In this document: positions 5,509-62,713 of the stretch, in pieces
Numbering within the stretch: position 1 is the first letter of the stretch
Layout of the letters: every line of letters starts with the position of its first letter
NCBI GenBank assembly: GCA_026168455.1
Contig: CM047429.1
Coordinates: 6,971,125-7,035,124 of the forward strand
Length of the DNA stretch: 64,000 nt
Direction: 5' to 3'
Source: Theocolax elegans
Lineage: Eukaryota > Arthropoda > Insecta > Hymenoptera > Cerocephalidae
Translations under genes and position numbers: made by a program
The notes under the pieces: generated by a model
Database searches by the model: none
What the model saw: the letters and a program-made list of their open reading frames with translations, nothing else
Told to the model about the DNA's origin: nothing

Positions 5509-5513
5509 TCTGT

Positions 5514-6632: not shown

Positions 6633-6639
6633 TCTGTTC

Positions 6640-8163: not shown

Positions 8164-8164
8164 G

Positions 8165-9295: not shown

Positions 9296-9646
9296 CTTGA
9301 CGATCGACGCTAGAGAACGTCGACGAGCGGGTTTCTAGTTTAAATGCTTGGTATCATAACAATTGTAGTAATTTTGGGTGGTTGAAGTGCGACTGTAGGT
9401 GTTGCTCTTGTTGTATTCGAAATCTCTTTCATTCGGCCAATCATATCGGTTGTGGTTTCTGTTAAAAGCCGTTCATAACTTTCCTGTATATCGTGGTAGT
9501 TGGTGCATATTGGTATTGCGTTCGAAACGCACATCGCTCGTTCGTTTGGATTATATACGATTTTATTGGTGCATATGTTCCATTTTAATGTATTGCACTT
9601 GCTGAGCACATGACCTACTCTTTTACAATAGTCACATAGTAAGGTT

Positions 9647-10456: not shown

Positions 10457-10742
10457 TGTGCATATGTGTGGGTTCCGTGGTGTGATTATGTCGTCGATGT
10501 AAATGTGTGTTAAATTGTGGTGATTGGTTGTGCGTTTTAGCCTCCAGTAATTGTTTTTGAGCAGTCTGTGTGACGCGTAGCGTGCGTTCTGGCAGCACGA
10601 GGTTTTTGTCCACGACGTTTGTACAGTTAAGGGTGCATGGGAACCTTCGGTGTCCAGATCGGACTGTGGATCTTTTAGTAGTTATTTTATTTTTTACGCT
10701 GTTTGTGGGGCCTATGGCTGGGAAATTTGGATTGTAAAGTGG

Positions 10743-25312: not shown

Positions 25313-25815
25313 ATATATAGATAGCTGTGACCTCAGGTAGCTGTGGCTTCAAACTATTGTGTGTACACACAAAATTGCATGCTCGAGTCGATCCAAATGA
25401 ATTTGAATTATTAACTCGATTTTGAACTTCACATAGTTTTATCACTGTTGTACTATAAAGGCCGTTAAGAATTCACGCTGATTAAGATAAAATTCCCTAC
25501 GTGTACATCCTATTTAACGTAGTCGAAATTGTCTGACTTGTAAAACCGTGAGCCGGGTAGTGCAGGCCTTCACGTTCAGCACCGAGTTGAAATTATTGCA
25601 ATGTAGACCATATGAATTGAATTGTTTAAACATATGCTCGGTTGATTTACGTGTGTTTTTTGATTAATTCGTTAGTTACTTTGATTAATGTATTAATTAT
25701 TGTCGACAACTAAATTAATTGAATTGCAATTAATTTCAATTAATAAATTATTGTGTTTGACAACAATTTAGATAATTTTTTCGGATTTTCTTCGTTTTTT
25801 TTGTTTTTATCTGGA
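25313..25815. other. AT-rich spacer between BEL/Pao and Gypsy-2
   Basis: No LTR of either element is recognisable here and no coding signal is seen. Gypsy-2 appears 5'-truncated against this segment. Confidence 0.5.
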
Positions 25816-26395
25816 AGAAATCCAACGTTTATTTAAGAGAGTTGAAGCTCGGTCGATCGAGAGTTTCTTGCAATTGGCGTTGGACGCCGAGCAAACACTC
25901 GAGCGAGAAAAGTTATATCGGCCGCCTCCCGCAGAAGAAGACTTGATGCTACCTGAATTAGCATATAAGTCGCGGAATAAGAAGCGGCCGAACGCTAAAC
26001 CAAAAGTAGCAAGCGTGGCCAAGGAAATGAGTGAACCGACTCAACCAGATCTTTTGGAACGGTTCACGAAGATTCTTGAGGAGACGCTAGTATCCGTTAA
26101 GACGAGTTGCCATACAGCTGGGGTGAGAGGCAAGATTGATGTCTCTCAAAGCAAGAAGACCCACAGATCACCTCCTCGGTTCAAATGGAGACAGAGGAAG
26201 GGTAGTCGTAAGAGTCCTGATCGACAGTCATCGAATGGCCATACGTCAAGAAACGACGAGAAGTTAAATGCCGGTGATAAGGAGAAGCGTAAAGATGTTG
26301 TCCCCAAGCCTATAGCCTGCAATACATGTGGCAAATTGGGCTATACAATTAGGACGTGTCCTGATTGTGCAAAAAACGCACGGGGAAGCGGCTAG
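25816..26395 (+). pseudogene. Gag C-terminal part with zinc knuckle, Gypsy-2
   Basis: The frame opens with EARSIESFLQLALDAEQTLE, a capsid C-terminal helix typical of gypsy Gag, then a basic linker. It ends in CNTCGKLGYTIRTCPDC, a CCHC-like knuckle in which the expected His reads Tyr. The N-terminal capsid is absent. It overlaps the pol frame by 31 bp. Confidence 0.7.
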
Positions 26396-27466
26396 AGGGG
26401 ACAGCCGCTGGTCCCGAGGTTGAGGGAGTCCCCGGAGAAGCGGTCGTAATCCTGAAATCTCGAGGCAGTCAAGCTGCAGAGATGAGTCAAGAAGATCTGA
26501 CGATAAATGACCCCAAAGAAGTTAGGACGGATCCGGTTACGAGTAAAATTTTAAAAATTACTCCGAAACCGAACCAGCGAGTTTATAGTCCAGAAGATGA
26601 GACGTGCTGGTGGTGTCAAATCGATATCGGTGGATACCGGATCCGAGCGTTGTTTGATCCAGGTGCATCAACAACGGTCATGGGTTTGAACGGTTTGCAG
26701 TTGGCGACCGCTCTTGGCAGATACATTCTCGATAAGCAAGCGGGTAGTGCTAAGCTTGCAGATGGTAGCACACACCAGTTGTGTGGACATGTCATGCTAC
26801 CTTTTACCATTGGTAAAGACACGCGAGATATACGGGTCGCAATTATGCCAAATTTAGATGCGGAATGCTATTTAGGAGTGAATTTCATTCGAGCATTCCG
26901 AGCAGTTCTTGACCCAGACTCCGACTGTTTATACTTCAAAGGGTCATCACAATTATTACAGCTGGAAGTGGCAAGTATTGAGAGTGGACACGCTTCGCTG
27001 TCGTCAGCGGGTGTGGCCGACGCGACAGAAGATGAGCGCCGACAACTGCGTGAACTTCTGGATCAAGTGCTGTCCAGTACTTTGCCAAATATCGGCCGAT
27101 CATACGATGTTGAACATGTTATCGACGTCGGTTCGGCGCGGCCGATCAAACAAAGGTATTATCCCGTCTCGGACAAGATTCGAGAGGAGATGCATCGACA
27201 AGTTCGAGAGATGCTTGAGACAGGCGTTATAGAACCGTCTAGTAGCGGTTGGTCCAGTTTAGTGGTGATGGCTAAGAAGGGCGAAAATGAAAGACGTTTT
27301 TGCATTGATTTCAGGAAGGTTAACGCTTTGACCAAACCTGATGCGTATCCTTTGCCGTTTATGCAGGATATTTTGCGCAAACTCAAGAGAGCCCGATATA
27401 TATCTACGATAGATATGAACTGCGCCTATCACCAAATACCTCTGCAAATGGAATCGCGCTGGCGCG
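26365..27466 (+). pseudogene. Protease and RT N-terminal half, Gypsy-2
   Basis: The frame has a retropepsin loop LFDPGASTTVMG (D-P-G in place of D-T/S-G) and a YLGVNFIRAF motif, then pre-RT DVEHVIDVGSARPIKQRYYP, RT motif RFCIDFRKVNALT and DMNCAYHQIPLQMESR. At about 27465 it jumps to another frame, missing the ~30 residues (xFxxPFGL block) normally before the TFQR helix. Confidence 0.8.
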
Positions 27467-28280
27467 ACGTTTCAACGTATGATAGACCAGGTGATTGGAC
27501 CTGCTCTCGAACCGAATGCTTACTCTTATCTTGACGATATCATTGTCGTGACGGAGACCTTCGAAGAGCACAAACTGTTGCTAAAGGAGGTGTTGACTCG
27601 TTTGACTGAAGCCGGTTTATCGGTAAACCGAGAGAAATGTGTTTTCTGTCAACCCGAAGTGAGATACTTGGGTGTGCGGGTCAATCGCGATGGGATAAGA
27701 CCCGATCCAGCTAAGACGGAGCCGATTCAAGAATATCCGGCTCCCCGAAATCTCAAGCAGCTGAGACGATTCCTCGGGATAGCATATTGGTACAGACAAT
27801 TTATACCCGACTTTGCTACGATAGCGGAGCCTTTAACACGTCTTACAAAGAAAGACCAAAAGTATGAATGGCTCCAAGAACAAGAAAGTGCATTTCAGCG
27901 ACTCAAAGCGCTGTTGATGACTGCACCCGTTCTACAGACTCCTGACGAGAATGGCGATTATACCATTCAAACAGATGCTAGTGACACCGGTATCGGTGCA
28001 GTACTAACACAGGTCGTTGATACTCTCGCCAGCAGAACGCAACTATAGCGTCTCAGAACGGGAATGCTTGGCCGTAGTATGGGCAATCTGAAAATTTCGA
28101 CAATATATTGAGGGTTACCAGTTTAAGGTTATAATTGATCATAGTAGTCTTCGTTGGCTGTGCAATATACACAATCCAACGCGTCGGCTCGCCAGATGGG
28201 CATTAGAACTCCAGTCTCATAATTTTACAATTGAGTACAGGAAAGGATCTCTAAACTATATCCCCGATGCACTTTCTCGC
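27467..28280 (+). pseudogene. RT active site, thumb and RNase H, Gypsy-2
   Basis: FQRMIDQVIGPALEPNAYSY leads to YLDDIIVVTET, the RT catalytic box. Next are the EKCVF, YLG and FLGIAYWYRQFI segments and the RNase H start QTDASDTGIGAVL. Frame then changes; ECLAVVWAI, IDHSSLRWL and YIPDALSRMYE (further RNase H blocks) follow with a TGA inside. All four acidic RNase H positions remain recognisable. Confidence 0.8.
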
Positions 28281-28955
28281 ATGTATGAAAAAGACGAGCC
28301 GGCCATCGCTTCAGTTTCTTGGAGCCAAACTACAAAAGATCCTTGGTACCTCTCATGGCTGAAAGACGCAACAGAGCGACCGAGAGATTTTCCGGAATGG
28401 AAGATAATAGGTGACAATTTGTATTCGTATCGCGTCGATAACGAGTTAGACGAGGTGATGGAGGATCAAGACGCTTGGAAGCTGGTTGTACGAGAGGAGC
28501 ATAGGCAAGCCTTACTCCGTGAGTGCCATGACGATCCGACTGCTGGACACTTAGGTAGGGAAAAGACATTTGCTAGAGAGGCTAACATGTATTATTGGCC
28601 GCGGTACTACGCCGAAGTCGGAGAATATGTACGCAAATGTCAGGTCTGCCAACAGTGTAAGGTGGAGCAACGTCCTCCTATGGGTTTGATGGGTAGACGC
28701 GTGATAGAGAAACCATGGCAAGTTGTAGCAGGTGACGTCACTGGCCCACTTCCGCGGTCACATGGTTACGAATACATATTGGTCTTTCAGAATTTGTTTA
28801 CGCGCTGGATCGAGGCGGTCCCGATTCGGAAAGCTAATACTAGGACCATCGTAAAAGAGTTGCATGAGCGAGTCATCACACGTTATGGTACCCCAGAGGT
28901 GTTTCTGTCCGACAACGAACTGAGTTTAAAAATAAACTCGTGGATTACTACTTAG
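28281..28955 (+). pseudogene. Integrase zinc domain and core start, Gypsy-2
   Basis: Contains LLRECHDDPTAGHLGREKT with CQVCQQC (HHCC zinc site), then VAGDVTGPLP (first Asp), YILVFQNLFTRWIEAVPI and VFLSDNE (second Asp; DNG has become DNE). The frame is lost immediately after the second Asp. Confidence 0.85.
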
Positions 28956-29824
28956 TGGAACGAGGGATTTTCCGTACGACGATTCCTCCTTACCATGCTC
29001 AGGCTAATCCTGTTGAACGTGCTAATAGGACGTTGAAGACAATGATCGCGTCCTATATCACAGAAAAGCACAACACATGGGATGAGAAACTCCCCGACTT
29101 GGTATTCGCTCTAAATACAGCAATACAAAGCTCGACAGGATGGAGCCCAGCCATGTTAAACTATGGCCGGCAACCCGAGCCACCCGGTACAGCTCGTAGA
29201 GCGCAAGACGAGCTGGTTCAACAACGTGTGGAATATCAACGTTTACTTGAGTGGAGTGATCGGCTGTCAAGATTACCTGAGCTTTACAAGAAAGCATCGG
29301 TCAATGCGAGTAAAGCTCATGAAAGGCAAGTCGGTTACTACAGTGCCGGGCGAAGAGCTGCATCTTTTGAAGTTGGAAACCTAGTGTGGAAGAAGAATCG
29401 GGTCCTTTCATCTAGTGCTCAAGGTATTTCGGCCAAGTTATCCCCGAAATACGTTGGCCCATACCTGGTAGTTTATAGCTACGGCCCAAATACCGTCAAG
29501 ACACAGGATGCCCGAGGTAACGAAGAGAAATGTCACGTACAGTATCTCAAACCGTACTTATCCGAAGATCACGGAGATGAGTACGGAGAAGTAGACGACA
29601 TCGAGATCGGTCAACCTACGCTGGAAGAGGAACCTGATAATACAGTTCCTGTGAGCGAAGACGTCTCGAACGGCGAGACACAAGCGAGCGAAGTTCCATG
29701 CGAGGAACATGGCGGCAATCCGACCGAGAACGCGCCCCTATTAAACGAAGTAGAGGTAGGCCGCGCAAACATGCTAGAGTCGTTGCTATACCGCGAAACC
29801 GAGCGAATGTTGTCTCTAATATAA
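28940..29824 (+). pseudogene. Integrase core end and C-terminal domain, Gypsy-2
   Basis: The frame resumes with VERGIFRTTIPPYHAQANPV and ERANRTLKTMI, giving the catalytic Glu. It then has a helical stalk, the LSPKYVGPYLVV motif of the GPY/F module and a long acidic tail (EVDDIEIGQPTLEEEP). Together with the previous frame it covers a full-length gypsy integrase. Confidence 0.85.
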
Positions 29825-29955
29825 GTCACCGTGGACAAGTTAAACGTGGTAGAGGTCGACCACGAGGTATGACAAAGCGTTAGTTAGTTAAGTTAGGCTA
29901 ATCGAATTTACTATGAGATTGGAATGACCCTGACAATTGGTATCTGTTTGTTTAG

Positions 29956-30965
29956 ATGCTGATCCAGTTCGACAGCGAACAGCTGGAGCTGTTGGTGTCC
30001 CGCCTCATCCAGAGTGGCATCAACGAGCCACAGACGCTTGAGCTCCTCAATGGAATCACCACGGCCGTGGACCAGGCCGTGAGAGACGAGGAGGAGGAGC
30101 GACGGCGGAGGCAGGAGGACCGAGACGCGGTGGTGATAGTGGAGGATGGGCCGGATGGAGTACCCGTCCATCCATCGAGCGGCCTGGTAGTCGAGCCGGA
30201 GTTACCCCAGGCTACAGGCCCGATCCCCGTAAGTCCACCGCCGCCCAGAGTCAGGGCTGAACAAGGGCCCAGGGACCCGGAGGTCCGGCTCCTCAACCAA
30301 CTCCAGGAGGATCCAGAGGAGTATGTTCCCCTTCGACGTCCAGGAATGAGTACTCCGGATCCGAGCGAGGCTTCGACGTCTCAATCTGGTCCAACCCCGC
30401 AGGAATTATCGGAGGACGGGGAAGAGGCGTGGCGTATCGTGTTGGAGGCGTTGACAAAGGACCGTGAGTCCTTCAAGGCCACGTCGATCGCCGAAAAGCA
30501 CGCCTTCGCCTTGTTCGATCAGTTCAAGGCGAAATTCCCCGAAGCCTCCGATAAAAGCGATCCTTGGGAGGCCATGATTGAACACCGTAAGGCGGAACGC
30601 CAAACGGTATCGACCATGAGGGCGGATCGGAGAGAGAGAGAGCGGCAGTAGCCGCTCGTGCCGAGGAACGGCAGAGGCGAGAAGAAGCCGCTCGGAGGGC
30701 CCACGAGGATCGGATTAGACTCGAGGAAGAGGCCAAGGAGGCACAACGCCGATTAGCCAGAGCTTGTGAGGAGGAAGAATGTGCTCAGGCTAATCTGGAA
30801 GGGAAAACTCTATGGCCGAAGAGAGGGTCTGACCCGAGATGCTCCATATGTAGGGATTGGGGGGTCCTCGATCCGGAGGACTGTCCAAAGAGATCCAAAC
30901 ACAAGGAGATCCGGCGTCAGAAGAAGGAGAGGTACCGCGAGAACCAGCAAAAACGGCAGGGGTAG
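29956..30965 (+). pseudogene. Extra 3' ORF of Gypsy-2: coiled coil plus Cys/His cluster
   Basis: Two frames (29956-30651 and 30642-30965) meet at a GA repeat (about 30630-30642), so slippage there probably caused the shift. The first part has a helical start (LIQFDSEQLELLVSRLIQSG), a Pro-rich middle and an acidic/charged stretch. The second is a long Arg/Glu coiled coil ending in a CSICRDWGVLDPEDCPKR cluster (C-x2-C-x11-C). It sits where env lies in other elements but has no signal peptide or membrane segment. I do not recognise the family; an RNA-binding or Gag-like accessory role is only a guess. Confidence 0.6.
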
Positions 30966-39917: not shown

Positions 39918-39964
39918 GGTGATCCAGAAACATAGGTAACATATATTTATATATATATATATAT

Positions 39965-40958
39965 GGGGTATTCCACGTGAAGTGGTCCGATCAAAATTTT
40001 AAAATGCACCAAATTTTGGGTACACATTGCCAATGTTTTTCAGAATACAGAAAAAAATTTTTAGGTACTGGAATCTATTTGCTCAAAAGTTATTCTAACC
40101 TCAAAAAGTGAATTTTTTCTAGTTTTTTTCAACACCAGCTGGGTTTACCGCTATTTAACTCAAAATCTATCAACTTTTACTATAAAACATTATATATAAC
40201 ATTCGTTGCTAACTATGTCTAGAATTTATCCTTCTGGGTTAGAATTTCTAATCTCAAGGTTAATGACAAATAAACTACATGTCAACATTCAACTTAAAAA
40301 TAGTGTAAGTGCGCCACAATTGACTTTTTTATCCAAAAGTCTAAAAAAAAGCTTGAAGCAATTCCTTTCAAATGGTCTGTAGCATTTTTGAGGCCTTCAA
40401 TTCTGTAAAAAGTTATGATAATTTAAAGAAATTCGATATTTTTTTAAAAATTTTAATGGGAATTACCATGTAAATTTTTGTGAATTTTATGTCTCTCTTT
40501 AAATTATCATAACTTTTTACAGAATTGAAGGCCTCAAAAATGCTACAGACCATTTGAAAGGAATTGCTTCAAGCTTTTTTTTAGACTTTTGGATAAAAAA
40601 GTCAATTGTGGCACACTTACACTATTTTTAAGTTGAATGTTGACATGTAGTTTATTTGTCATTAACCTTGAGATTAGAAATTCTAACCCAGAAGGATAAA
40701 TTCTAGACATAGTTAGCAACGAATGTTATATATAATGTTTTATAGTAAAAGTTGATAGATTTTGAGTTAAATAGCGGTAAACCCAGCTGGTGTTGAAAAA
40801 AACTAGAAAAAATTCACTTTTTGAGGTTAGAATAACTTTTGAGCAAATAGATTCCAGTACCTAAAAATTTTTTTCTGTATTCTGAAAAACATTGGCAATG
40901 TGTACCCAAAATTTGGTGCATTTTAAAATTTTGATCGGACCACTTCACGTGGAATACC

Positions 40959-40960
<2 letters not shown>
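39965..40960. mobile_element. Nested 996-bp near-perfect palindrome (465-bp arms)
   Basis: Left arm 39965-40429 and right arm 40496-40960 are complementary with about one mismatch seen; the loop is 66 bp. The ends are GGGGTATTCCACGTGAAGTG and its complement, in a TA repeat, so a TA or ATAT target is likely. A transcript would make a long double-stranded hairpin. No coding. Confidence 0.9.
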
Positions 40961-40994
<34 letters not shown>

Positions 40995-43295: not shown

Positions 43296-43611
43296 TTTCT
43301 ACAATTGAAAGTACTGAAATCAAAGCGGCGTAATCGACAAGTATTTTGTATATCTTACCGTAAATTTGTGATTAATTAAACATTTACATATATTTCTTAA
43401 ACTCCAGAAAAAGTTCTGCAATAGAAAGTACTGAAATCAAAGCGGAATCAACAAGTATTTGAATCTAACTCCCATATTTTCTCTACTTATTTATATTATT
43501 TTATTACACCTTTTTTATATATTCCATAATAGTTTTCTGCAATTGAAAATATTGAAATCAAAAACACCTTCCAAGAAGGTGTCAAAACCCGCAAGTATTT
43601 TGTGTTGACAC

Positions 43612-43658
<47 letters not shown>

Positions 43659-44132
43659 TTTCTACAATTGAAAGTACTGAAATCAAAGCGGCGTAATCGA
43701 CAAGTATTTTGTATATCTTACCGTAAATTTGTGATTAATTAAACATTTACATATATTTCTTAAACTCCAGAAAAAGTTCTGCAATAGAAAGTACTGAAAT
43801 CAAAGCGGAATCAACAAGTATTTATTTTTTAAAAATACAAATATCTATTAAATTGAAAACAAACATTTTTTCAGAAAAGCATCCTACAAATTTACATTTC
43901 AATTCTAGTCCTGTCATGTCCTACAAGCAATAAATAAATAATTTTTTAATAATTTTATTAATTTCTGCAAAACTGATAAAAAATAAATTTCTGACTTTTT
44001 TATTCTCTTTAAATACACAATGTCTATCCTTACCGTGTTTTACAGCAATAGATAAACAATTTTATATAATAGTAATAATATTCATTTGTGCAAAATTAAT
44101 TTCTGCAAAACTAATAAAAAAGTAATTTCTCT
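42950..44132 (+). repeat. Dispersed AT-rich repeat block (copy B), split by Gypsy-3
   Basis: It includes a ~400-bp tandem duplication (43061 and 43469 start the same CTCCCATATTTTCTCTAC run), each half with a TA microsatellite and ~50-bp ACAATTGAAAGTACTGAAAT / CGACAAGTATTT motifs. The block continues after Gypsy-3 at 59397-59441. An inverted copy lies at 59745-60690. A CACCTTCCAAGAAGGTG hairpin recurs in both halves. Confidence 0.75.
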
Positions 44133-45948
44133 TGTGACTGTTGTTTGAGCGTTCTGAAGGAACGAGAAAGTGACAATTCGGCAAAGAGTTGACCGTTATA
44201 TAGAGTCATAAAAAAAAATGTCTCTTTTCCTTCGGTTCGCTACATACAACGCGGCGCGCTTCGTTTTAGCCTATACTTTCGTATAATAGCAGGGTTGAAG
44301 CATCTAGAAAACGTACAACTCAAAAATATAGAGAGCTACCGTGCTTAAACTTTAAAAATTGATTTATCTACCAAAATTAATTAATTTGATTTTTATTCCT
44401 TTCTTAAATCCGATTTTTATTGATTTTATCCTTATTTTGAAATGCTGTCTATCTTATATGTAAACAAAAAAACTAATAATAAAATTCGTCGAATGAACCA
44501 CAAAGTTCTCCTTGTTTCCAAGTGAACCCAAAGTTCTCTTCGACAACTTACTCTGTTTGATACAAGAAAAACTTGCTAAATGAACCACAAAGTTCTCCTT
44601 GTTTCCAAGTGAACCCAAAGTTCTCTTTAACAGTTTACTCTATTTACTATGAGAAAAATTGCCCAAATGAACCACAAAGTTCTCCTTGTTTCCAAGTGAA
44701 CCCAAAGTTCTCTTCGTCAACTTACTCTCTTTGATTATTATTTAATTCTAAATAGGTTGAAATAATAAAATTTGAATTACTTTTTTTTTATTATGTTTTT
44801 CTTCTTTAATACTTGGATTTTAATTTTAATATAATATTTTACAATATAGATTGAATTTGAATATAAATGAAAAATTAAGAATTGAAAATAGAAAAATTGA
44901 GTGTGAAACACCAAGTTGCCTCTAGTCCGCCTGTGGACTAGATCAACCATAAATTTCTCCACTCGAGGGGTGATCGTATGAATGATGCTGTGGTCCTTGG
45001 TGCTGGCCTTTTTATACGGTGACGAGCTCATTTGAACCAATCTGTAAGACAAAGAGCTTCAATTTCGACGAATGAGGATGATCCTTGAATTTTCCTTGCT
45101 CGAATTTTCTTAAACGGGAGAAAAGCTGCACCAATTGTAGACCAAGTTAACGCCCACACACGCCTTCCTACATATATGCTCGTTACGTAAGAGAAAGATA
45201 AAAAACAGAGTAGGAGAAAATTTTCGGAGCCCTTAAAGTAAAGTAGAGAGGGACAATATTTCCTTCTCTCTCGCACGCTCGCTTTTTCTTAATTTTATAA
45301 TATTTCTTAATTAAACAATAAATGGTAGATATTTTCAAAATTAGATATAATAATTAAATTCTGTATAAAAAGTTATACATTTACAAATTTGAATGAAAGC
45401 TGTATGTTAATTTAATAAAAAGTTATATTATAAAATATACAGATATTCGTTTAACTATTATTTATTGTTGAATTATGGTTGAATCTAATAATCATTTTAA
45501 AGTATTAAAAAAAAAATTATATTTATAGAATTTTAATTATTAATTAAAATAGTAAAATTATTATTATTATAAAAGAGAATAAAAGAAAATTTAGGGTATT
45601 ATATAAAAATATATAATTAACACTATTTTCTATAATAACAAAATATTATAATATAAAAAAAATGGAAATAATATTTAAAATAATATTTTTTTTGGTAAGA
45701 CTTCTTAACATAGCTTAAAAACGCATAGAAGATGCATCGATGTTCATTCGCATCGAACGCAGGTCAAGCGCCACATCTGGTTACAATTCACTTGACTAGG
45801 GTCGAGTTGTAAAGCGAGAGAAGTCTCTCACTCGGTACGCATCGAAGCCGCTCATAAAATTCTTTAATTTTTCCTATATATATATATTCTACATATATTC
45901 TAAGTTTTCTTCTTATTATTTTCTATAAAACTTGACGGAGACGTTACA
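44133..45948 (-). repeat. 3' LTR of Gypsy-3 (1,816 bp)
   Basis: Plus-strand ends are TGTGACTG and GACGTTACA. It holds three 87-bp tandem units from 44492, 44579 and 44666, each with AATGAACCACAAAGTTCTCC and a second AAAGTTCTCTT. It differs from the other LTR by a 25-bp GC-rich segment near 44255 and a few substitutions. Confidence 0.95.
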
Positions 45949-45957
45949 CCCCCATAC
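45949..45957 (-). promoter_or_regulatory. Polypurine tract of Gypsy-3
   Basis: Minus-strand GTATGGGGG abuts the 3' LTR start TGTAACGTC, the normal place of the plus-strand primer. Confidence 0.65.
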
Positions 45958-46103: not shown

Positions 46104-46742
46104 TTACAATTGAAAGAAAGGTTTTTGCTTTGCAACTTCAGTAGGTTTATTTTCTTCATTAACTGCATTAGACGACTGTGGTACATTAATATTCGTTGGT
46201 TGAGTTAAAAGTTCTCTACCCAGTTCGACATTGGTTTCTTCTTGTGGTGGTCTTCTCCCTAAGTATATTAATAGATGTGTAACTGAGCTCCAAATTGCTC
46301 CTAACAGATAAAGTGACCATCCATACACTGCATGTAAGGCATAGCCCTGAATTAATATGTCTATTATTGTTTTAATAACTTGAAAGATCATAAATATAGC
46401 AATGATCCCTGCACTAGCAGTTCCAAATGTTAAGAATTTACTCCACATCCGATCCCAGGTGTTATCAATAATTTTTTCTACGGCTCCATCATTCAACAAT
46501 TTTACAATTACACCATTTTCATCCATGATGGGATGTCCACGTAATTCTCTTGCTATGTCGTTTAATAATGCTGCTCTTTCTATTGGGAACATTATTCTTT
46601 CATTAATATGGCTTAACTCAACATCAGTATAAACTCCTGATTTGGCTAAGTTAACTGGATTTGTATAATTCCAAGTTGTTCTTGTAGTTGGTTTAATAAT
46701 TGCAGGTTCCTTAGCTTCTGTTGGTCTAGGTAAAATTTTATA
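46104..46742 (-). pseudogene. Env-type glycoprotein, C-terminal part with membrane segments
   Basis: Same frame as the middle part but separated from it by a single TAG (46743-46745). It has an ectodomain end, a long hydrophobic segment beginning FGTASAGIIAIFMIFQVIKT, a second hydrophobic stretch, and a polar cytoplasmic tail of ~55 residues. This is the layout of a membrane-anchored fusion glycoprotein. Confidence 0.65.
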
Positions 46743-47465
46743 CTATTCATTATCTACATAATAGAGTGATGGTAAGACTGGATTACAAGGCATTTGAGTA
46801 CCCGTTGTTTTTAATATTCTCGTTCTTGGAGTAAGAAAATAAGTTTTGTTATTCCTTGATACCTCAAGTTCAGCGTAGCATTGTTTCCCATGAAACATTT
46901 TAACTTCTACAGGTACACATTTAACAATATGTACAACTTCTCCGCCTAGGACAGCTAAATATCCGGGTCCTTTCATTAAATTATATGCAAATTCATCTGG
47001 TGCTTGAGTTGCGATGGCAAGTGAATTTTTAATAGTTTGTCTTTCTAAATCACACTTCTGTGTAAGAACATCAATGTATAATTGCTTCATTTGAGTTCGT
47101 ATATGTCGTTCAACATATACAAACTTAGAATTAACATAAGTGAAAATGTCTAAATTAGAAACTGATATTTTTTTATGTTCTGCAAAACTGTTATCTTTAT
47201 CTGTCTCAAAAATTACTAATTTGGGGTGCTCTGTCTTTACAATAGTATAACCGCAAACGAATTCCTTTCCTTTTGCTGTAAGCGCAAACGTTATATCTTC
47301 AGATGCTAATGAATATATAATTTGACTATCACTATTTACATTTATCATTTTACTAGCAAAACCCTCATACAAAATACCATATTTATGAAAATTACATATG
47401 TCAGAAGGAACAGAATTCCAATAAGTATTACCCCCTTCGAAATCAATGCAACTTCCATCAGACAT
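46743..47465 (-). pseudogene. Env-type glycoprotein, middle part
   Basis: A 240-residue ectodomain segment with several Cys (in GSCIDFEGG, VCGYTIV, KQCYAEL, QMPCNPV) and predicted helices around QMKQLYIDVLTQKCDLERQT. A frame change near 47460 separates it from the N-terminal part. It could only be made as one protein if the breaks are assembly errors. Confidence 0.6.
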
Positions 47466-48040
47466 ACACTTCCAGATCGTAAATGAATAGTATTTGAATC
47501 TAATTTAACATTAGCACTTTGTTCAGTTAAAGATATTTTAATCGTACCTTTTACAATAACATTTTCCCATTCGCCATAGGGATCCATATAACCGACTCCA
47601 TCACATTTACCGTTTTCACCGCTATAACCGGCAAATGTCATAGGTCTAGTGAAAGTAGCATTTGATTTTAACCCTTGTATTATATTTCCATTACCAACAT
47701 TATACATTCCAAACATATGCATGTCTCGACAAGCTTCGCGACTAACATCTTTTACATATTCTCCGATATCTACAATTTTTACCCATGAATTAAAACCACA
47801 ATAATATACATTACGTTTTATTTCTACTTTACATTGTATTGCCATAGTTTCGGAATATTCATTTATTTGTAATAATTGAATATATCGCTGAGTAACATTT
47901 ATAGAATTATTTGGTATATTACACTCGCCTACTTCCCTTAAAGAAAGTGTGGTTATGTTAAGATTTCTCGAACCGCAATCATATCCAATTAACCCATAGG
48001 TAGAATGTATAAAAACAAGAAAGGTAAATATAAAATGCAT
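47466..48040 (-). pseudogene. Env-type glycoprotein, N-terminal part with signal peptide
   Basis: Starts 50 bp after the pol stop with a clear signal peptide (MHFIFTFLVFIHSTYG) and then a YDCG and NITTLSL pattern with a GECNIP Cys. This start resembles the glycoproteins of chuvirus-type arthropod negative-strand viruses that some insect LTR elements have captured. That family call rests on pattern memory and is tentative. The 3' end of the frame runs past the break near 47460. Confidence 0.5.
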
Positions 48041-48090: not shown

Positions 48091-49614
48091 TTATTCGTTA
48101 TCCGAGTCTTTTTTTCTTCTTTTTTTCTTTTTCATTTTTACTTCGTGATTAATATGTGAAATATGTAGTCGATTTGCGTGTACAATTTTAGGTGTTTTAT
48201 AAAATAAAATTTTAACATTATTTTTATCAATTATTTCTAAGATTTTATGAGGTCCAGTATAATGATCTCCTATAGGTGAGCTATGAAGCTCGTAAAATAT
48301 TTCATTCCTTTTTTCTTCAGGTACATATTTCAATATTCCTTTACAAATTATAACCTTAATATTAGTATTTTTAAACACTGATTCTATTAATTCTAAAACT
48401 TCTAACCAACTAACATTTTCTATATATTTACTTTTGGCTATACTAAATTCATTAATTTTTTTTACCTGTATTATTTGCTTTAACGTTAATAGTGTATTAT
48501 AAATTTGTTTTTTAATATAAATTTGAGATTCAGGAGTAGGTCCACGAATGCATAACGCAATTAGATATTTATTATTTATACGCTTATAAGTATTAATAGT
48601 ACCTACTTCTAAATTTCGTTTCTCTGGTATTTTATTAGCTAAAAGTAACCCTTGAGCTCCTTCGTCACATGGCTTACCACTACTATCTATAAAATAGACT
48701 ATATTATCACTTCGGAATTGTAATAATTCTTTGGTCTCAACTATGTTATTTGTAATTTGATTTTTATTATTAAAAATTTTATCTATTATATCCTCATCAG
48801 ATGAAGTTTCATTAAAAGATGATAAATTATTTTCTTTTGAAGCTATTAGCTTATTTTGATTAAAATCTTCATCTGGCGAGGATAATGAACTACTAGAACT
48901 ATGAATTGATTTACGTATATTATTTTTAACATTTTTTTTAACTCTATTATGACTATCCCGCTTACTAATTTCTGCTTCTACATCACTATTACTATCACTA
49001 CTCTCTGCATAATTGACTTCTTCTATTTTATTTTTAATTTGATTTTTCTCTTGGTCATTTTTGGTATTTTCAGCCTTTTGTAATAATTTTTGTCTACGAG
49101 TTATAACATTAATCTGTTCTGTCATTGGTATATTTCTTGACAATGCGTCAGCGTGAAGATTTTGTTTACCCGGTTTATAAATTATGTTATAATCATACTC
49201 TGAAAGTTTGAACCTCGATTTTTGAACACGAGTATTTAAATTAGCAGTCTTAAACCATACTAAAGGTTGATGGTCAGTTACAATTGTTACTTTTCTTCCA
49301 AAAACATAAGGTCTGAATTCCTTAACTGCATGAATAACTGCAAGTGCTTCCTTTTCATAAGTATCATATTTTAACTCGGGTCCTCTTAAAACGCGGGAAG
49401 TATAGGCTATTGGCCTATCCTTTCCAAGCTTTCCTTGAGAAAGTATGCCACCTATAGCATATCCTGATGCATCTGTTGTAATTATAAATGGTTGAGTCAT
49501 ATCAGGAAATGCTAATAATGGAACAGAACATAAAATATCTTTTAAGGTTATAAAAGCTGTTTCTGTATTTTCATTCCATTCGAATTTATTATCTTTCTGT
49601 AAAAGTTTGGTCAA
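48091..49614 (-). pseudogene. RNase H, macrodomain-like region and truncated integrase, Gypsy-3
   Basis: A 507-residue frame. Residues 1-160: RT connection end and RNase H (TTDASGYAIGG with D48, YEKEALAV E88, TDHQPL D114, HADALSR D156). Residues 165-290: charged Ser/Asn-rich linker. Residues 302-425: macrodomain-like region (48711-48340). Residues 432-451: start of an integrase zinc domain (two His). At 452-453 this joins directly to GPHKILEI and KIVHANRLHISH, the integrase C-terminal module. The zinc Cys pair and whole DDE core are therefore missing, in frame. A Lys-rich tail ends the protein. Confidence 0.85.
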
Positions 49615-49763: not shown

Positions 49764-50646
49764 TTAGAATATGCGAAAATATGTCACCTCCTTTTTCAAA
49801 ATATTACATTTTTCAGGTTCCAATTTCCAATTAGCTTTGCGTAGTCTATCCATTACTTCATTAAACAATTCTTCATGTTCTTCTAATGTTTTTAAATAAC
49901 AATCATAAATAACAATATCGTCCATATAAACAAAAACACCTTTTCCGATCAATCCTTGTAGGGTAAAATTCATCGCTCGCTGGTATTCTACACCAGCGTT
50001 TCGTAATCCAAAGGGCATTCGAACAAATTCATAATGCCCAGAGGTTGTGGAGAAAGCAGTTTTCTCTGCATCCTTCTCATTTAATAAAATTTGGTGGAAC
50101 CCCGCCACGCAGTCCATCACTGAGTACCAGCACGCATTCCCTACTTGGTCTAAAATATCCGTAATATTTGGTATTGGGTGAGACATTGGAATCGTTTTTT
50201 CATTAAGAGGTCTAAAATCTAATACTACACGCCATCTTGGTTTACCATCCGATCCTGCCTTTTTTGGTACGACCCAGAGACTAGTATTATAAGGCGATCT
50301 TGAATGTCTTATAATTCCTTTTTTTAACAATTCTTGTACTTGCCTTTCTACTTCATCCCTTAGGGTATGAGGTAACCTATATTGTTTTGTATTCACCGGT
50401 ATATCGTCAACCGTAGGTATCCTATGAGTTACTACATTGGTTACTGTTAACTTATCACCTTCTAAATAAAACATATCTAAATTATTTTTTATTAACCTAT
50501 ATGCTTGATCTAATTCCTTATCCTTAAGATAATTTAGTTTCATTAAACCCTTTAACCTATCTAAACGAGATAATTTAGTTTCTACTGTACTTATTTCTTT
50601 TAAATTAGACCTTAATTGACTACTACAAATATTAAGATAATCAGTA
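49764..50646 (-). pseudogene. Reverse transcriptase, Gypsy-3
   Basis: Fingers and palm of a gypsy RT: YRLPHTLRDEVERQVQELLK, RWRVVLDFRPLNEKTI, SVMDCVAGFHQIL (first Asp), FSTTSGHYEFVRMPFGLRNA and FVYMDDIVIY (catalytic pair). The frame enters directly from the 13-bp duplication left of the hammerhead array. A one-base loss near 49775 shifts it out of frame with the connection and RNase H. Otherwise all RT motifs are intact. Confidence 0.88.
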
Positions 50647-50887
50647 TCATCTTTAAATAATAAATGAATTTATTGATCTCCACAAGCCAAAGAAATATTC
50701 CTCACAACTCAAGTAAGGCGGACTGTATTAATACCAGCCACTATAGAAACCTCACAGGATGAGTGTTTGAAAAAAGACTAAGACAAGCTAAGTCAAAAAA
50801 ATATATAAAATTTAATTGATTGTAATATAAAATTAATAAAAACTTAAAAAGATGGAAAAAAAATTAAAAAAAGAAAAGAAAATTTAT

Positions 50888-50954
50888 TGTATTTCGCCCT
50901 GAGTATGCCTGGTGGGCTCATCAGTAGAGTCCAGGCATCTCGTCTCTAGATACA
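50888..50954 (-). ncRNA. Hammerhead ribozyme, minus-strand copy
   Basis: Exact reverse complement of the plus-strand hammerhead cores, with the same stems and the CTGATGAG / CGAAA core. Cleavage would fall between the complements of 50949 and 50948. Confidence 0.85.
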
Positions 50955-51377
50955 GATGAAAGATATACAAATTTTTGAAAATCAGCTCTATCCCGACGAG
51001 GAAGACATGGGGTATATATGCCCTACCTATAGCAAACTTTATTAAGTGCCACATATTAACAGGTAGCCCCCTAACGCACTTACATAGAATTAATGTCTTA
51101 ATCGTCAGAATATTGTCACATAAAGCAATTTTGTGATCTAATGCCGTATAATTTGAAAATTCGTGAATTTATTGCTTGTTTATATTATAAGTTATATGAT
51201 AAATGAATTTATTGATCTCCACAAGCCAAAGAAATATTCCTCACAACTCAAGTAAGGCGGACTGTATTAATACCAGCCACTATAGAAACCTCAAGTTTGC
51301 TATAGGTAGGGCATATATACCCCATGTCTTCCTCGTCGGGATAGAGCTGATTTTCAAAAATTTGTATATCTTTCATC

Positions 51378-51444
51378 TGTATCTAGAGACGAGATGCCTG
51401 GACTCTACTGATGAGCCCACCAGGCATAGTCAGGGCGAAATACA
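51378..51444 (+). ncRNA. Hammerhead ribozyme 1 (type III layout)
   Basis: Stem III is UGUAU with AUACA; the cleavage triplet is AUC (cut after 51383). Stem I is UAGAG with CUCUA around a 14-nt loop. Core CUGAUGAG follows, then stem II GCCC with GGGC around a 14-nt loop, then GAAA. Loop I AUGCCUGG and loop II CCAGGCAU are fully complementary (8 bp), so the loops could kiss. All invariant core bases are present. Confidence 0.88.
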
Positions 51445-51916
51445 ATAAATTTTCTTTTCTTTTTTTAATTTTTTTTCCATCTTTTTAAGTTTTTATTAAT
51501 TTTATATTACAATCAATTAAATTTTATATATTTTTTTGACTTAGCTTGTCTTAGTCTTTTTTCAAACACTCATCCTGTGAGGTTTCTATAGTGGCTGGTA
51601 TTAATACAGTCCGCCTTACTTGAGTTGTGAGGAATATTTCTTTGGCTTGTGGAGATCAATAAATTCATTTATCATATAACTTATAATATAAACAAGCAAT
51701 AAATTCACGAATTTTCAAATTATACGGCATTAGATCACAAAATTGCTTTATGTGACAATATTCTGACGATTAAGACATTAATTCTATGTAAGTGCGTTAG
51801 GGGGCTACCTGTTAATATGTGGCACTTAATAAAGTTTGCTATAGGTAGGGCATATATACCCCATGTCTTCCTCGTCGGGATAGAGCTGATTTTCAAAAAT
51901 TTGTATATCTTTCATC

Positions 51917-51983
51917 TGTATCTAGAGACGAGATGCCTGGACTCTACTGATGAGCCCACCAGGCATACTCAGGGCGAAATACA
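51917..51983 (+). ncRNA. Hammerhead ribozyme 2
   Basis: Same core, stems and complementary loops as copy 1 (loop II reads CATACTCA rather than CATAGTCA at its end). Predicted cut after 51922. Confidence 0.88.
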
Positions 51984-52455
51984 ATAAATTTTCTTTTCTT
52001 TTTTTAATTTTTTTTCCATCTTTTTAAGTTTTTATTAATTTTATATTACAATCAATTAAATTTTATATATTTTTTTGACTTAGCTTGTCTTAGTCTTTTT
52101 TCAAACACTCATCCTGTGAGGTTTCTATAGTGGCTGGTATTAATACAGTCCGCCTTACTTGAGTTGTGAGGAATATTTTCTTTGGCTTGTGGAGATCAAT
52201 AAATTCATTTATCATATAACTTATAATATAAACAAGCAATAAATTCACGAATTTGCAAATTATACGGCATTAGATCACAAAATTGCTTTATGTGACAATA
52301 TTCTGACGATTAAGACATTAGTTCTATGTAAGTGCGTTAGGGGGCTACCTGTTAATATGTGGCACTTAATAAAGTTTGCTATAGGTAGGGCATATATACC
52401 CCATGTCTTCCTCGTCGGGATGAGCTGATTTTCAAAAATTTGTATATCTTTCATC

Positions 52456-52522
52456 TGTATCTAGAGACGAGATGCCTGGACTCTACTGATGAGCCCACCA
52501 GGCATACTCAGGGCGAAATACA
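52456..52522 (+). ncRNA. Hammerhead ribozyme 3
   Basis: Core and stems identical to copy 2. Predicted cut after 52461. Its unit has shortened T-runs downstream, but the ribozyme is untouched. Confidence 0.88.
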
Positions 52523-52987
52523 ATAAATTTTCTTTTCTTTTTTAATTTTTTTCCATCTTTTAAGTTTATTAATTTATATTACAATCAATTAAATTTATAT
52601 ATTTTTTTGACTTAGCTTGTCTTAGTCTTTTTTCAAACACTCATCCTGTGAGGTTTCTATAGTGGCTGGTATTAATACAGTCCGCCTTACTTGAGTTGTG
52701 AGGAATATTTCTTTGGCTTGTGGAGATCAATAAATTCATTTATCATATAACTTATAATATAAACAAGCAATAAATTCACGAATTTGCAAATTATACGGCA
52801 TTAGATCACAAAATTGCTTTATGTGACAATATTCTGACGATTAAGACATTAGTTCTATGTAAGTGCGTTAGGGGGCTACCTGTTAATATGTGGCACTTAA
52901 TAAAGTTTGCTATAGGTAGGGCATATATACCCCATGTCTTCCTCGTCGGGATAGAGCTGATTTTCAAAAATTTGTATATCTTTCATC

Positions 52988-53054
52988 TGTATCTAGAGAC
53001 GAGATGCCTGGACTCTACTGATGAGCCCACCAGGCATACTCAGGGCGAAATACA
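52988..53054 (+). ncRNA. Hammerhead ribozyme 4
   Basis: Core and stems identical to copies 2 and 3. Predicted cut after 52993. It is the last before the partial unit that ends the array. Confidence 0.88.
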
Positions 53055-53325
53055 ATAAATTTTCTTTTCTTTTTTTAATTTTTTTTCCATCTTTTTAAGT
53101 TTTTATTAATTTTATATTACAATCAATTAAATTTTATATATTTTTTTGACTTAGCTTGTCTTAGTCTTTTTTCAAACACTCATCCTGTGAGGTTTCTATA
53201 GTGGCTGGTATTAATACAGTCCGCCTTACTTGAGTTGTGAGGAATATTTCTTTGGCTTGTGGAGATCAATAAATTCATTTATCATTTATAATATAAACAA
53301 GCAATAAATTCACGAATTTTCAAAT

Positions 53326-54347
53326 TCATCTTTAAATAGTTTCGATTCTATATTTAAATCTTTAAAAACTTGTTCCGTTGAAAAATATGAACTATAACTT
53401 TCACTTAAATTAATTTTTTTATCAGTAAAATTAAACTCGGGATTTTCGTATTTAGTCTGTATTGAATTATCACTATCATATTCATCATAATAATTTCCAT
53501 TTTGCATTTCGTTTATTTTTGGTACTGTAAATTCTACACGAGGTTTTAATATTTGAATTTTATCTTGAACCTTAAATATTCCAGCTCCAAAATCTATTAT
53601 TGCTTTTGATTTTTCCAAATATTCTACTCCGATTATACCTTCACAAGGAATACTTAATTCATCCGGTACAACTTGGAAATCTATTGTATAATCTAACAAC
53701 AAAATTTCGGTTGATCCTAAAGTAGGTATAAAATCACCATTTACTCCCTTTAAATATATAGCCCTAGACTTATTTATGTTGCAAAATTGAGGTATTAAGC
53801 TCTTCTTTATGAGGCTGCCTTCAGCACCAGTATCTATTAAAAATTGACCTTTATTACCATCATTTTTATTCAAAATATCAATAAAAGGTAAAGCAGTATT
53901 ATTTTTAATATTAATATTAATTACTCTATTAATTTCTAACTCTTGTTCTACATTAAAATCTTGTCTGAAAGGTACTATCATATTATTACAAATGAGAGTT
54001 TTATTATCAAAATTAATAATGGTCTCTGTTTCATTAAAAAATTGAGCACCTAAAATTCCATCATATATAATTCCAAAAGAATCGCTAACGACATGAAATT
54101 TAGTAGGAAAATTTAAAATTTTTATTCTAACTGTACCAATAGATTTATTAATATCATCTGAAATACCTTTTATTAATATTATTTCATCAGTACAAATATT
54201 CATATCCAATGGTAAGGCGCTAAATTTAATAATATTTCCTTGAGAGCCTGAATCTATCATTAAATTAAATTTTTTTGTAATACATCTACATGAAATATAC
54301 GGGATAAGTTTACCGAAACTTTTTAATCTAAGGGTATTAATTCGCAT
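53326..54347 (-). pseudogene. Double retropepsin-like protease, Gypsy-3
   Basis: One frame carries two aspartic-protease-like domains. Domain 1 (residues ~25-120): LMIDSGSQGNIIK with D32-S-G and GILGAQFF near its end. Domain 2 (~165-260): FLIDTGAEGSLIKKSLI with D172-T-G and GIIGVEYL. The two align along their length, so they are a tandem duplication. Retroviral proteases are normally homodimers; here one chain could form the two-Asp site. The frame overlaps the zinc-knuckle frame by 25 bp, shifted -1, and is then cut by the hammerhead array. Confidence 0.85.
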
Positions 54348-57605: not shown

Positions 57606-59396
57606 TGTGACTGTTGTTTGAGCGTTCTGAAGGAACGAGAAAGTGAAAATTCGGCAAAGAGTTGACCGTTATATAGAGTCATAAAAAAAAAATGTCTCTT
57701 TTCCTTCGGTTCGCTACATACAACTTTCGTATAATAGCAGGGTTGAAGCATCTAGAAAACGTACAACTCAAAAATATAGAGAGCTACCGTGCTTAAACTT
57801 TAAACATTGATTTATCTACCAAAATTAATTAATTTGATTTTTATTCCTTTCTTAAATCCGATTTTTATTGATTTTATCCTTATTTTAAAATGCTGTCTAT
57901 CTTATATGTAAACAAAAAAACTAATAATAAAATTCGTCGAATGAACCACAAAGTTCTCCTTGTTTCCAAGTGAACCCAAAGTTCTCTTCGACAACTTACT
58001 CTGTTTGATACAAGAAAAACTTGCTAAATGAACCACAAAGTTCTCCTTGTTTCCAAGTGAACCCAAAGTTCTCTTTAACAGTTTACTCTATTTACTATGA
58101 GAAAAATTGCCCAAATGAACCACAAAGTTCTCCTTGTTTCCGAGTGAACCCAAAGTTCTCTTCGTCAACTTACTCTCTTTGATTATTATTTAATTCTAAA
58201 TAGGTTGAAATAATAAAATTTGAATTACTTTTTTTTTATTATGTTTTTCTTCTTTAATACTTGGATTTTAATTTTAATATAATATTTTACAATATAGATT
58301 GAATTTGAATATAAATGAAAAATTAAGAATTGAAAATAGAAAAATTGAGTGTGAAACACCAAGTTGCCTCTAGTCCGCCTGTGGACTAGATCAACCATAA
58401 ATTTCTCCACTCGAGGAGTGATCGTATGAATGATGCTGTGGTCCTTGGTGCTGGCCTTTTTATACGGTGACGAGCTCATTTGAACCAATCTGTAAGACAA
58501 AGAGCTTCAATTTCGACGAATGAGGATGATCCTTGAATTTTCCTTGCTCGAATTTTCTTAAACGGGAGAAAAGCTGCACCAATTGTAGACCAAGTTAACG
58601 CCCACACACGCCTTCCTACATATATGCTCGTTACGTAAGAGAAAGATAAAAAACAGAGTAGGAGAAAATTTTCGGAGCCCTTAAAGTAAAGTAGAGAGGG
58701 ACAATATTTCCTTCTCTCTCGCACGCTCGCTTTTTCTTAATTTTATAATATTTCTTAATTAAACAATAAATGGTAGATATTTTCAAAATTAGATATAATA
58801 ATTAAATTCTGTATAAAAAGTTATACATTTACAAATTTGAATGAAAGCTGTATGTTAATTTAATAAAAAGTTATATTATAAAATATACAGATATTCGTTT
58901 AACTATTATTTATTGTTGAATTATGGTTGAATCTAATAATCATTTTAAAGTATTAAAAAAAAAATTATATTTATAGAATTTTAATTATTAATTAAAATAG
59001 TAAAATTATTATTATTATAAAAGAGAATAAAAGAAAATTTAGGGTATTATATAAAAATATATAATTAACACTATTTTCTATAATAACAAAATATTATAAT
59101 ATAAAAAAAATGGAAATAATATTTAAAATAATATTTTTTTTGGTAAGACTTCTTAACATAGCTTAAAAACGCATAGAAGATGCATCGATGTTCATTCGCA
59201 TCGAACGCAGGTCAAGCGCCACATCTGGTTACAATTCACTTGACTAGGGTCGAGTTGTAAAGCGAGAGAAGTCTCTCACTCGGTACGCATCGAAGCCGCT
59301 CATAAAATTCTTTAATTTTTCCTATATATATATATTCTACATATATTCTAAGTTTTCTTCTTATTATTTTCTATAAAACTTGACGGAGACGTCACA
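57606..59396 (-). repeat. 5' LTR of Gypsy-3 (1,791 bp)
   Basis: Plus-strand ends are TGTGACTG and GACGTCACA. It contains the same 87-bp triple repeat (from about 57941) as the other LTR and lacks the latter's 25-bp GC-rich segment. The ORFs inside both LTRs are identical chance frames. Confidence 0.95.
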
Positions 59397-60690
59397 CTCT
59401 CTTTTTTATTCTCTTTAAATAAAATAATACTTGCATCACTCGTTGAATTGCTTTCTTTCTCTTGTATGTTAAGTCTAATTCTAACTGCATAACACACTGC
59501 ATATGCATGTTTCTATCAAGGGCTTATAAATATTTTAAGGTAAGATTAAGTATATGACTTAATGTTTCTCATGAGACCTGTAATATATATCGTATCAGCG
59601 ATTAATTTTTATTTGACTTCAGCAGTTAAACAAAGCACCCGCACTTGACAACTATTTATGATTAGAAAAAGAATAGACACGTTCAATTCCAAATTAGAAA
59701 TATTAGGTTTTAAACATTCGATTGCTTTATTTCAACTTTTTTTAAACTGTCATCGGTATACAAGAGGATATTAATAAATCATAAAAAAATTTTGAAACAC
59801 TTAACCAACGGTGGTGCAAGTATTATTTTATTTAAAGAGAATAAAAAAGAGAGAAATTATTTTTTTATTAGTTTTGCAGAAATTAATTTTGCACAAATGA
59901 ATATTATTACTATTATATAAAATTGTTTATCTATTGCTGTAAAACACGGTAAGGATAGACATTGTGTATTTAAAGAGAATAAAAAAGTCAGAAATTTATT
60001 TTTTATCAGTTTTGCAGAAATTAATAAAATTATTAAAAAATTATTTATTTATTGCTTGTAGGACATGACAGGACTAGAATTGAAATGTAAATTTGTAGGA
60101 TGCTTTTCTGAAAAAATGTTTGTTTTCAATTTAATAGATATTTGTATTTTTAAAAAATAAATACTTGTTGATTCCGCTTTGATTTCAGTACTTTCTATTG
60201 CAGAACTTTTTCTGGAGTTTAAGAAATATATGTAAATGTTTAATTAATCACAAATTTACGGTAAGATATACAAAATACTTGTCGATTACGCCGCTTTGAT
60301 TTCAGTACTTTCAATTGTAGAAACTGTATATATATATATATATAATGTTAAGTATAAGTTACATATAAAAAAGGTGTCAACACAAAATACTTGCGGGTTT
60401 TGACACCTTCTTGGAAGGTGTTTTTGATTTCAATATTTTCAATTGCAGAAAACTATTTATAAAAAAGGTGTAATAAAATAATATAAATAAGTAGAGAAAA
60501 TATGGAAGTTAGATTCAAAATACTTGTTGATTCCAGTTTGATATAAGTTACATATAAAAAAGGTGTAATAAAATATAAATAAGTAGAGAAAATATGGGAG
60601 TTAGATTCAAAATACTTGTCGTTCCAGTTTGATTTCAGTCCTTCCAATTGCAAAAGCTTCATATATGGAGATTTGTAATATAAAAAAAAA
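59397..60690 (-). repeat. Dispersed AT-rich repeat block (end of copy B, then inverted copy C)
   Basis: 59397-59441 continues copy B from 44132. From about 59745 the sequence is the reverse complement of copies A and B, including the GGTGTTTTTG/GACACCTTC hairpin and the AAATACTTGTCGATTAC motifs (near 60162, 60276, 60395, 60515, 60620). With the Gypsy-3 insertion removed, copies B and C would be a ~1-kb-armed inverted repeat with a ~0.3-kb spacer. Confidence 0.75.
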
Positions 60691-62620: not shown

Positions 62621-62713
62621 TTATCTTTTTTTATTATTCTTTCTGTCACTATATGAAATATATAATATATTTTATTATTCTTTCTTTTTTTTTTTTTTTT
62701 TCTCCTTTTTTAG

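What the first reader, a model, noticed from the sequence alone, without database searches (positions are those of the whole stretch)
50660..53325. Tandem hammerhead-ribozyme array acting as a mobile element
Five near-identical ~539-bp units, four plus and one minus, each hold a full hammerhead core: CUGAUGAG, GAAA, an AUC cut site and three base-paired stems. The array is bounded by a 13-bp target duplication and sits in a young retroelement. Known hammerhead satellites (schistosome, newt, Dolichopoda cricket) and retrozymes give precedent. An insect array caught as a discrete insertion is rare. Self-cleaved ~539-nt RNAs that circularise, then insert by target-primed reverse transcription, would explain it.
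Basis: partly seen in the sequence, partly recalled or inferred. Interest (0 to 1): 0.95.

Follow-up and report, generated by a model that had tools for sequence, protein, structure and literature searches.

The report
Retrotransposed array of hammerhead-ribozyme repeats
A short non-coding DNA repeat, each copy carrying a self-cutting RNA of a kind rarely reported in animal genomes, looks as if it was copied from RNA into another mobile element, and the scars it left hint at which copying machinery did it.

Summary
Window 50660-53325 is a 2,666-bp head-to-head insert (1.18 units minus, 3.77 units plus; unit 539 bp) between exact 13-bp target duplications, inside a young LTR retroelement. Its five ribozyme copies fit a type III hammerhead (Rfam RF00008, 32.8 bits, E 1.7e-4 in a 2.8-kb search, below the 48.5-bit curated cut-off), with an 8-nt perfect complement between loops I and II. 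Both array ends copy the same RNA strand from internal points 48 nt apart, far from the cleavage site, and two substitutions are shared by only two neighbouring units. That suits priming from both target strands on a multi-unit, uncut transcript, as published for Penelope-like elements, somewhat better than one 539-nt circle. It works like a metazoan non-LTR retrozyme but misses three tested features of that class, so I call it a new variant; one review already mentions insect elements with type III hammerheads. Self-cleavage, expression, circularity, enzyme and genome-wide copies are untested: the genome search did not complete (8 attempts), and the host, probably an insect, is inferred.

The parts
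50647..50659 (.). left copy of 13-bp target-site duplication TCATCTTTAAATA
   Evidence: exact match, 2 of 2 occurrences in the window
50660..51293 (-). inverted segment (634 bp, 1.18 units), unit position 195 through 289 of the following unit, head-to-head with the rest; base 51293 is shared by both segments
50886..50956 (-). type III hammerhead, minus-strand copy; predicted cut between 50949 and 50948
   Evidence: RF00008 32.8 bits, E 1.7e-4; descriptor; core position
51293..53325 (+). direct segment (2,033 bp, 3.77 units), starting at unit position 449 and ending at unit position 337
51376..51446 (+). type III hammerhead copy 1 (cut 51383/51384); G where the other copies have C at unit position 46, in loop II outside the loop-loop complement
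51915..51985 (+). type III hammerhead copy 2 (cut 51922/51923)
52454..52524 (+). type III hammerhead copy 3 (cut 52461/52462)
52986..53056 (+). type III hammerhead copy 4 (cut 52993/52994)
53283..53325 (+). 3' 'tail': unit positions 290-337 (48 nt in the unit, 43 here after a 5-nt loss), present at the right end only
   Evidence: comparison of the two array ends
53326..53338 (.). right copy of 13-bp target-site duplication

Best explanation
A non-autonomous, non-coding, retrozyme-like element. A parental tandem array is transcribed; each 539-nt unit carries a type III hammerhead that can cut the transcript (inferred). A transcript still holding several units was copied into DNA at a staggered break in the pol region of an LTR retroelement. 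Both 3' ends of the broken target primed reverse transcription on the same RNA sense strand at internal sites 48 nt apart, giving a long direct segment and a shorter inverted segment joined head-to-head, and repair left a 13-bp duplication. The helper enzyme is most likely a Penelope-like element, next most likely a LINE. Shown: anatomy, target duplication, strand logic, internal ends. Inferred: RNA template, self-cleavage, multi-unit template, enzyme.
For: 13-bp target duplication at exact ends. Both outer ends read as antisense copies of the ribozyme strand, started from opposite target strands. Internal start points 289 and 337, giving a one-sided tail. By eye, 0 and 1 nt of terminal homology between target and unit at the two ends (sequences printed). 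Order of two SNPs along the inferred RNA is A-A-B-B-A (the last copy covers only the first SNP), so the template probably had more than one unit. Published match: the Anolis Penelope-like protein in vitro cuts and extends both strands, starts internally at two sites without target homology, the span between them being the optional 30-40 bp tail, and used unprocessed RNA as dominant substrate (PMC11167929, main text read). Rotifer Penelope inserts have direct pLTRs plus a head-to-head inverted pLTR, a 31-bp tail and 8-10 bp duplications in three cases (PMC3846280, passages).
Against: One insertion only. The tail (48, or 43 as found) is longer than the published 30-40 bp, and 13 bp is longer than the 8-10 bp duplications in the rotifer passages, where some inserts have none. 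AT-rich flanks (77.5% of 80 bp) are weak evidence: 149 of 799 80-bp tiles of this 65% AT window are as AT-rich. No Penelope-type gene was matched, but Pfam was run on 27 of the 41 window ORFs of 110 aa or more. The shared substitutions rest on two sites and could come from later unequal duplication. LINE twin priming also gives 5' inversions.
Confidence: 0.5

Rival explanations
1. One reading: ribozyme-cut 539-nt monomers are circularised by a host ligase and copied round and round by target-primed reverse transcription (LINE or Penelope enzyme).
For: Published model for metazoan retrozymes (PMC7229834, parts 1-4 of 6 read). Internal start points fit a circle. Units are nearly identical.
Against: Two substitutions shared by p2 and p3 only cannot come from one monomer circle without later exchange or a template switch. 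The circular unit folds no more stably than shuffles (-102.8 against mean -100.6 kcal/mol, z -0.32, 60 shuffles) and pairs 51-55% of its bases (40 Markov controls: mean 59%), whereas above 70% is reported for retrozyme RNAs.
Confidence: 0.25
2. DNA-level event: a piece of satellite or extrachromosomal circular DNA was captured at a staggered break.
For: Tandem near-identical units resemble satellite DNA; the one-base overlap at the head-to-head join fits end joining.
Against: A clean 13-bp duplication, and inversion exactly so that both ends copy one strand, are not expected from simple capture (inference).
Confidence: 0.13
3. Endogenised viroid-like or deltavirus-like circular RNA.
For: Type III hammerheads with loop-loop pseudoknots occur in termite and toad HDV-like RNAs and in termite and dipteran genomes (PMC7936874, passages).
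Against: No hammerhead on the opposite strand; longest ATG ORF in the circle 59 aa antisense, 25 aa sense; fold no more stable than shuffles.
Confidence: 0.05
4. Assembly artefact: the inverted join or unit number is wrong.
For: The 9 single-base indels of p2 and p3 all lie in about 52176-52594; 8 of the 9 are gained or lost T in T runs, as long-read errors often are. No reads could be checked.
Against: Exact target duplications bound the whole array and the left end has its own start point.
Confidence: 0.07

Closest known systems
Metazoan non-LTR retrozymes (Cervera and de la Pena 2020, PMC7229834; also reported there in insects)
   Same: Non-coding tandem repeats with a hammerhead per unit, low GC (32% here), target duplications longer than 4 bp when present; Nematostella repeats have 15-bp ones (PMC4918200, passages)
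   Different: Those have type I hammerheads and RNAs of about 170-400 nt that are highly self-paired; here type III, 539 nt, folding no better than shuffles
Type III pseudoknotted hammerheads of insects (Drosophila pseudoobscura, termites, Musca, Rhagoletis, Hermetia; PMC7936874, passages)
   Same: Type III, 5-bp first stem of helix I, Watson-Crick contact between helix I and loop II with a GCC/GGC centre
   Different: The toad and termite ones have an internal loop and capping hairpin on helix I and a 6-bp stem II (4 bp here), and a GCCR/YGGC contact (GCCU/AGGC here); termite genomic copies are isolated motifs; the paper found none in hymenopterans, hemipterans or a cockroach. The passages do not say whether the dipteran copies are in tandem
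Insect 'elements with type III HHRs' (one sentence in PMC7761336, citing a 2010 paper not seen and work in preparation)
   Same: States that insects contain elements with type III hammerheads
   Different: No anatomy, size, array or insertion scar is given in the passages seen, so overlap with this element cannot be judged
Penelope-like elements (PMC11167929, PMC3846280)
   Same: Tandem copies, head-to-head inverted copy, short target duplication, one-sided tail, internal start sites
   Different: They encode RT and GIY-YIG endonuclease, and their hammerheads are minimal type I (PMC7229834, PMC7761336); no such ORF here
Plant LTR retrozymes (PMC4918200, passages)
   Same: Type III hammerhead, unit size near 600-800 nt
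   Different: LTRs and 4-bp duplications; here no LTRs and 13 bp
Dolichopoda pDo500 satellite (PMC2837043, passages)
   Same: About 500-bp insect repeat with a hammerhead
   Different: Abundant satellite (about 5% of one genome); no insertion scar mentioned in the passages seen

Membership tests
Type III hammerhead ribozyme | Core CUGAUGA...GAAA, NUH cut site, stems I and II closed by loops, stem III open | tested here: met
   5 of 5 copies: stems 5/4/5 bp, AUC cut site; RF00008 E 1.7e-4
Type III hammerhead ribozyme | Score above Rfam gathering cut-off | tested here: not met
   32.8 against 48.5 bits; loops here are 14 nt, longer than in the model consensus shown
Type III hammerhead ribozyme | Hammerhead fold preferred by energy | tested here: inconclusive
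   -9.1 kcal/mol for the hammerhead against -21.3 for the best nested fold; loop-loop duplex up to -12.8 not counted; pair probabilities at most 0.016 in the whole circle without pseudoknots
Type III hammerhead ribozyme | Self-cleavage | not testable with these tools
   needs in vitro transcription
Metazoan non-LTR retrozyme | Type I hammerhead | tested here: not met
   type III topology
Metazoan non-LTR retrozyme | Unit about 170-400 nt | tested here: not met
   539 nt
Metazoan non-LTR retrozyme | Tandem non-coding repeat, GC under 45%, no LTRs | tested here: met
   GC 31.9%, longest ATG ORF 59 aa; tandem, outer ends in inverted not direct orientation
Metazoan non-LTR retrozyme | Highly self-paired RNA (above 70% of bases) | tested here: not met
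   51% (p2) and 55% (p1) paired, controls 59%; z -0.32
Metazoan non-LTR retrozyme | Expressed as circular RNA | not testable with these tools
   no RNA data
Penelope-like insertion | Head-to-head inverted copy plus tandem copies, short target duplication | tested here: met
Penelope-like insertion | One-sided tail of 30-40 bp between two start sites | tested here: inconclusive
   48 bp in the unit, 43 as found
Penelope-like element | RT plus GIY-YIG protein | tested here: not met
   no ORF above 59 aa in the unit; no match in 27 of 41 window ORFs of 110 aa or more
Plant LTR retrozyme | LTRs, 4-bp duplication | tested here: not met
   13-bp duplication, no LTR
Plant LTR retrozyme | PBS and PPT | not tested
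   no search made
Viroid-like or HDV-like agent | Ribozymes in both polarities | tested here: not met
   one strand of each unit only

The most novel reading that the evidence does not exclude
A new lineage of animal retrozyme: a non-coding type III hammerhead element that hijacks a Penelope-like enzyme, is copied from multi-unit transcripts that have escaped cleavage, and carries paired start signals (the repeat CAATAAATTCA at unit positions 274 and 314, just upstream of the two ends). Escape could come from the ribozyme itself: the same 8-nt segments make either the loop-loop contact of the active fold or a long hairpin that destroys it (-9.1 plus -12.8 before any loop penalty, against -21.3 kcal/mol), a built-in choice between cutting and moving.
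Probability: 0.25. Interest if true: 0.75.

Novelty: new variant of a known kind. Interest (0 to 1): 0.53.

Why it matters
How animal hammerhead repeats move is open: the published view is a circular RNA copied by an unnamed LINE or Penelope enzyme (PMC7229834). A single young insertion with readable ends lets that be tested, because end points, tail, inversion and unit haplotypes each discriminate between circle, cut monomer and uncut multimer. It also places a type III, loop-paired hammerhead in a tandem mobile element of a probable insect, where the papers I saw mostly report type I in such arrays and describe type III in insect genomes only as motifs or in one sentence.

Tried and rejected
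Exact ribozyme pattern and a looser stem-II pattern against viral contigs: 0 matches each, so no relatives were obtained. BLAST of the array against the rest of the window: only a 41-bp, 34-bit match to 62674-62712, seen from 4 array places, which I take as chance. Junction palindrome as proof of self-priming: rejected, because 10 or more pairs arise in 4.6% of 20,000 random inverted joins, 0.6% (10 to 13 pairs) if true fold-backs are left aside. AT-richness of the target as evidence: dropped, since 149 of 799 tiles are as AT-rich. Paper searches (10 of 10 used) listed no paper whose title or abstract start describes a type III tandem hammerhead element in insects; that speaks only for those searches of open-licence papers. 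One review sentence says insects have elements with type III hammerheads, and the 2021 paper announces dipteran work in preparation.

Host: 1,057 relatives of the RT piece were found and 120 listed; 5 of the 120 bear an organism name: Lasius niger twice, Cataglyphis niger, Cardiocondyla obscurior (ants, my knowledge) and Euphydryas editha (a butterfly, my knowledge). So insect is likely, ant possible, neither shown.

Full report
Observation. The window holds a discrete insert at 50660-53325 between exact 13-bp copies of TCATCTTTAAATA. Up to position 51293 the unit runs on the minus strand (634 bp, 1.18 units); from it on the plus strand (2,033 bp, 3.77 units); base 51293 is shared. The direct units measure 539, 539 and 532 bp between cleavage sites.

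Ribozyme. Each of five copies reads UGUAUC|UAGAG-loop-CUCUA-CUGAUGA-GCCC-loop-GGGC-GAAAUACA: stem I 5 bp, stem II 4 bp, stem III 5 bp, AUC cut site, both loops 14 nt. Rfam calls the five type III hammerheads (32.8 bits, E 1.7e-4 for a 2,801-base search), below its curated cut-off of 48.5; at that cut-off there are no matches in the window. My descriptor gave 1 hit in 60 simulated windows, so the motif alone is suggestive, and the loop-loop complement AUGCCUGG/CCAGGCAU (chance 0.0004 to 0.0006) makes it strong. Against it, a nearest-neighbour fold prefers a long hairpin made from the same segments (-21.3 against -9.1 kcal/mol for the hammerhead); the loop-loop contact is worth up to -12.8 before penalties, so the two states are about equal. 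Activity is plausible, not shown.

Unit. GC 31.9%, no ATG ORF above 59 aa, no more stable than 60 shuffles (z -0.32); 51-55% of bases paired against 59% in 40 Markov controls. No hammerhead was found on the opposite strand. This argues against a viroid-like agent, and also departs from the highly self-paired retrozyme circles in print.

Context. The target is an LTR retroelement on the minus strand with LTRs at 44133-45949 and 57606-59397 and a 5-bp duplication TCTCT. Pfam finds protease (53310-54347), RT (49764-50543) and RNase H (48091-49614), and a Monjiviricetes-type fusion glycoprotein in three pieces (46107-48040). The array lies between protease and RT. LTR divergence is 0.3-0.5% in mismatches; the array has 3 substitution sites in 2.67 kb, so it looks no older than the element.

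How it got there. The left end (unit position 289, read backwards) and the right end (337) are both antisense copies of the ribozyme strand begun at opposite target strands. That is what happens when both 3' ends of a staggered break prime on one RNA: LINE twin priming (recalled; only a search listing with abstract starts seen), or the two-strand extension shown for the Anolis Penelope-like protein, which also starts internally at two sites without target homology; the stretch between them is the optional 30-40 bp tail (PMC11167929, main text read). Rotifer Penelope inserts show the same layout with 8-10 bp duplications in three cases, and none in others (PMC3846280, passages). Here the tail is 48 nt in the unit and 43 nt as found. 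The match is good but rests on one insert, and AT-rich flanks say little in this window.

Circle or multimer. Units p2 and p3 alone share T332G and A398G; p1 alone has G instead of C at 46; the remaining copies are alike at these sites where they cover them. Along the inferred RNA the order at 332/398 is A-A-B-B-A (the last copy covers 332 only). A single 539-nt circle cannot give this at birth; a multi-unit transcript can; so can later duplication of one unit. I put multimer ahead of circle about two to one.

Comparison. It works like a metazoan non-LTR retrozyme (PMC7229834, parts 1-4 of 6 read) but misses three tested features: type I ribozyme, 170-400 nt unit, high self-pairing. Type III loop-paired hammerheads are known from some insect genomes (PMC7936874, passages), as isolated motifs in termites, and a review mentions insect elements with type III hammerheads without detail (PMC7761336, passages). 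I saw no figures. So: a new variant of a known kind.

Limits. No genome-wide data, no RNA data, host inferred from RT relatives, one locus.

Noticed in passing
46107-48040 (-): The host LTR element carries a Monjiviricetes-type viral fusion glycoprotein spread over three ORFs (Pfam PF24664, E 5.8e-99, 1.5e-61, 1.3e-54). No integrase core was matched in the RNase H ORF 48091-49614.
   Followed up: partly
43436-44132 and 59850-60542: Inverted repeats (96.7% over 702 columns) flank the LTR element; a further 49-bp inverted match lies just beyond the right LTR, so the element seems to have landed in one arm of an older palindrome.
   Followed up: partly
39941-40984: A 1-kb sequence that is 97% its own reverse complement.
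   Followed up: no
about 52176-52594: The 9 single-base indels among p2 and p3 fall in this stretch, 8 of them in T runs; looks like local consensus error.
   Followed up: partly
51280-51305: The head-to-head join sits in an interrupted palindrome CTATAGAAAC-CTCAA-GTTTGCTATAG.
   Followed up: partly
unit positions 274-284 and 314-324: Direct repeat CAATAAATTCA ends 5 and 13 nt upstream of the two array ends; noticed after the fact.
   Followed up: partly
25772-30962 (+) and 4979-10681 (-): Pieces of two further LTR-type retroelements (protease, RT, integrase zinc finger, integrase core).
   Followed up: no
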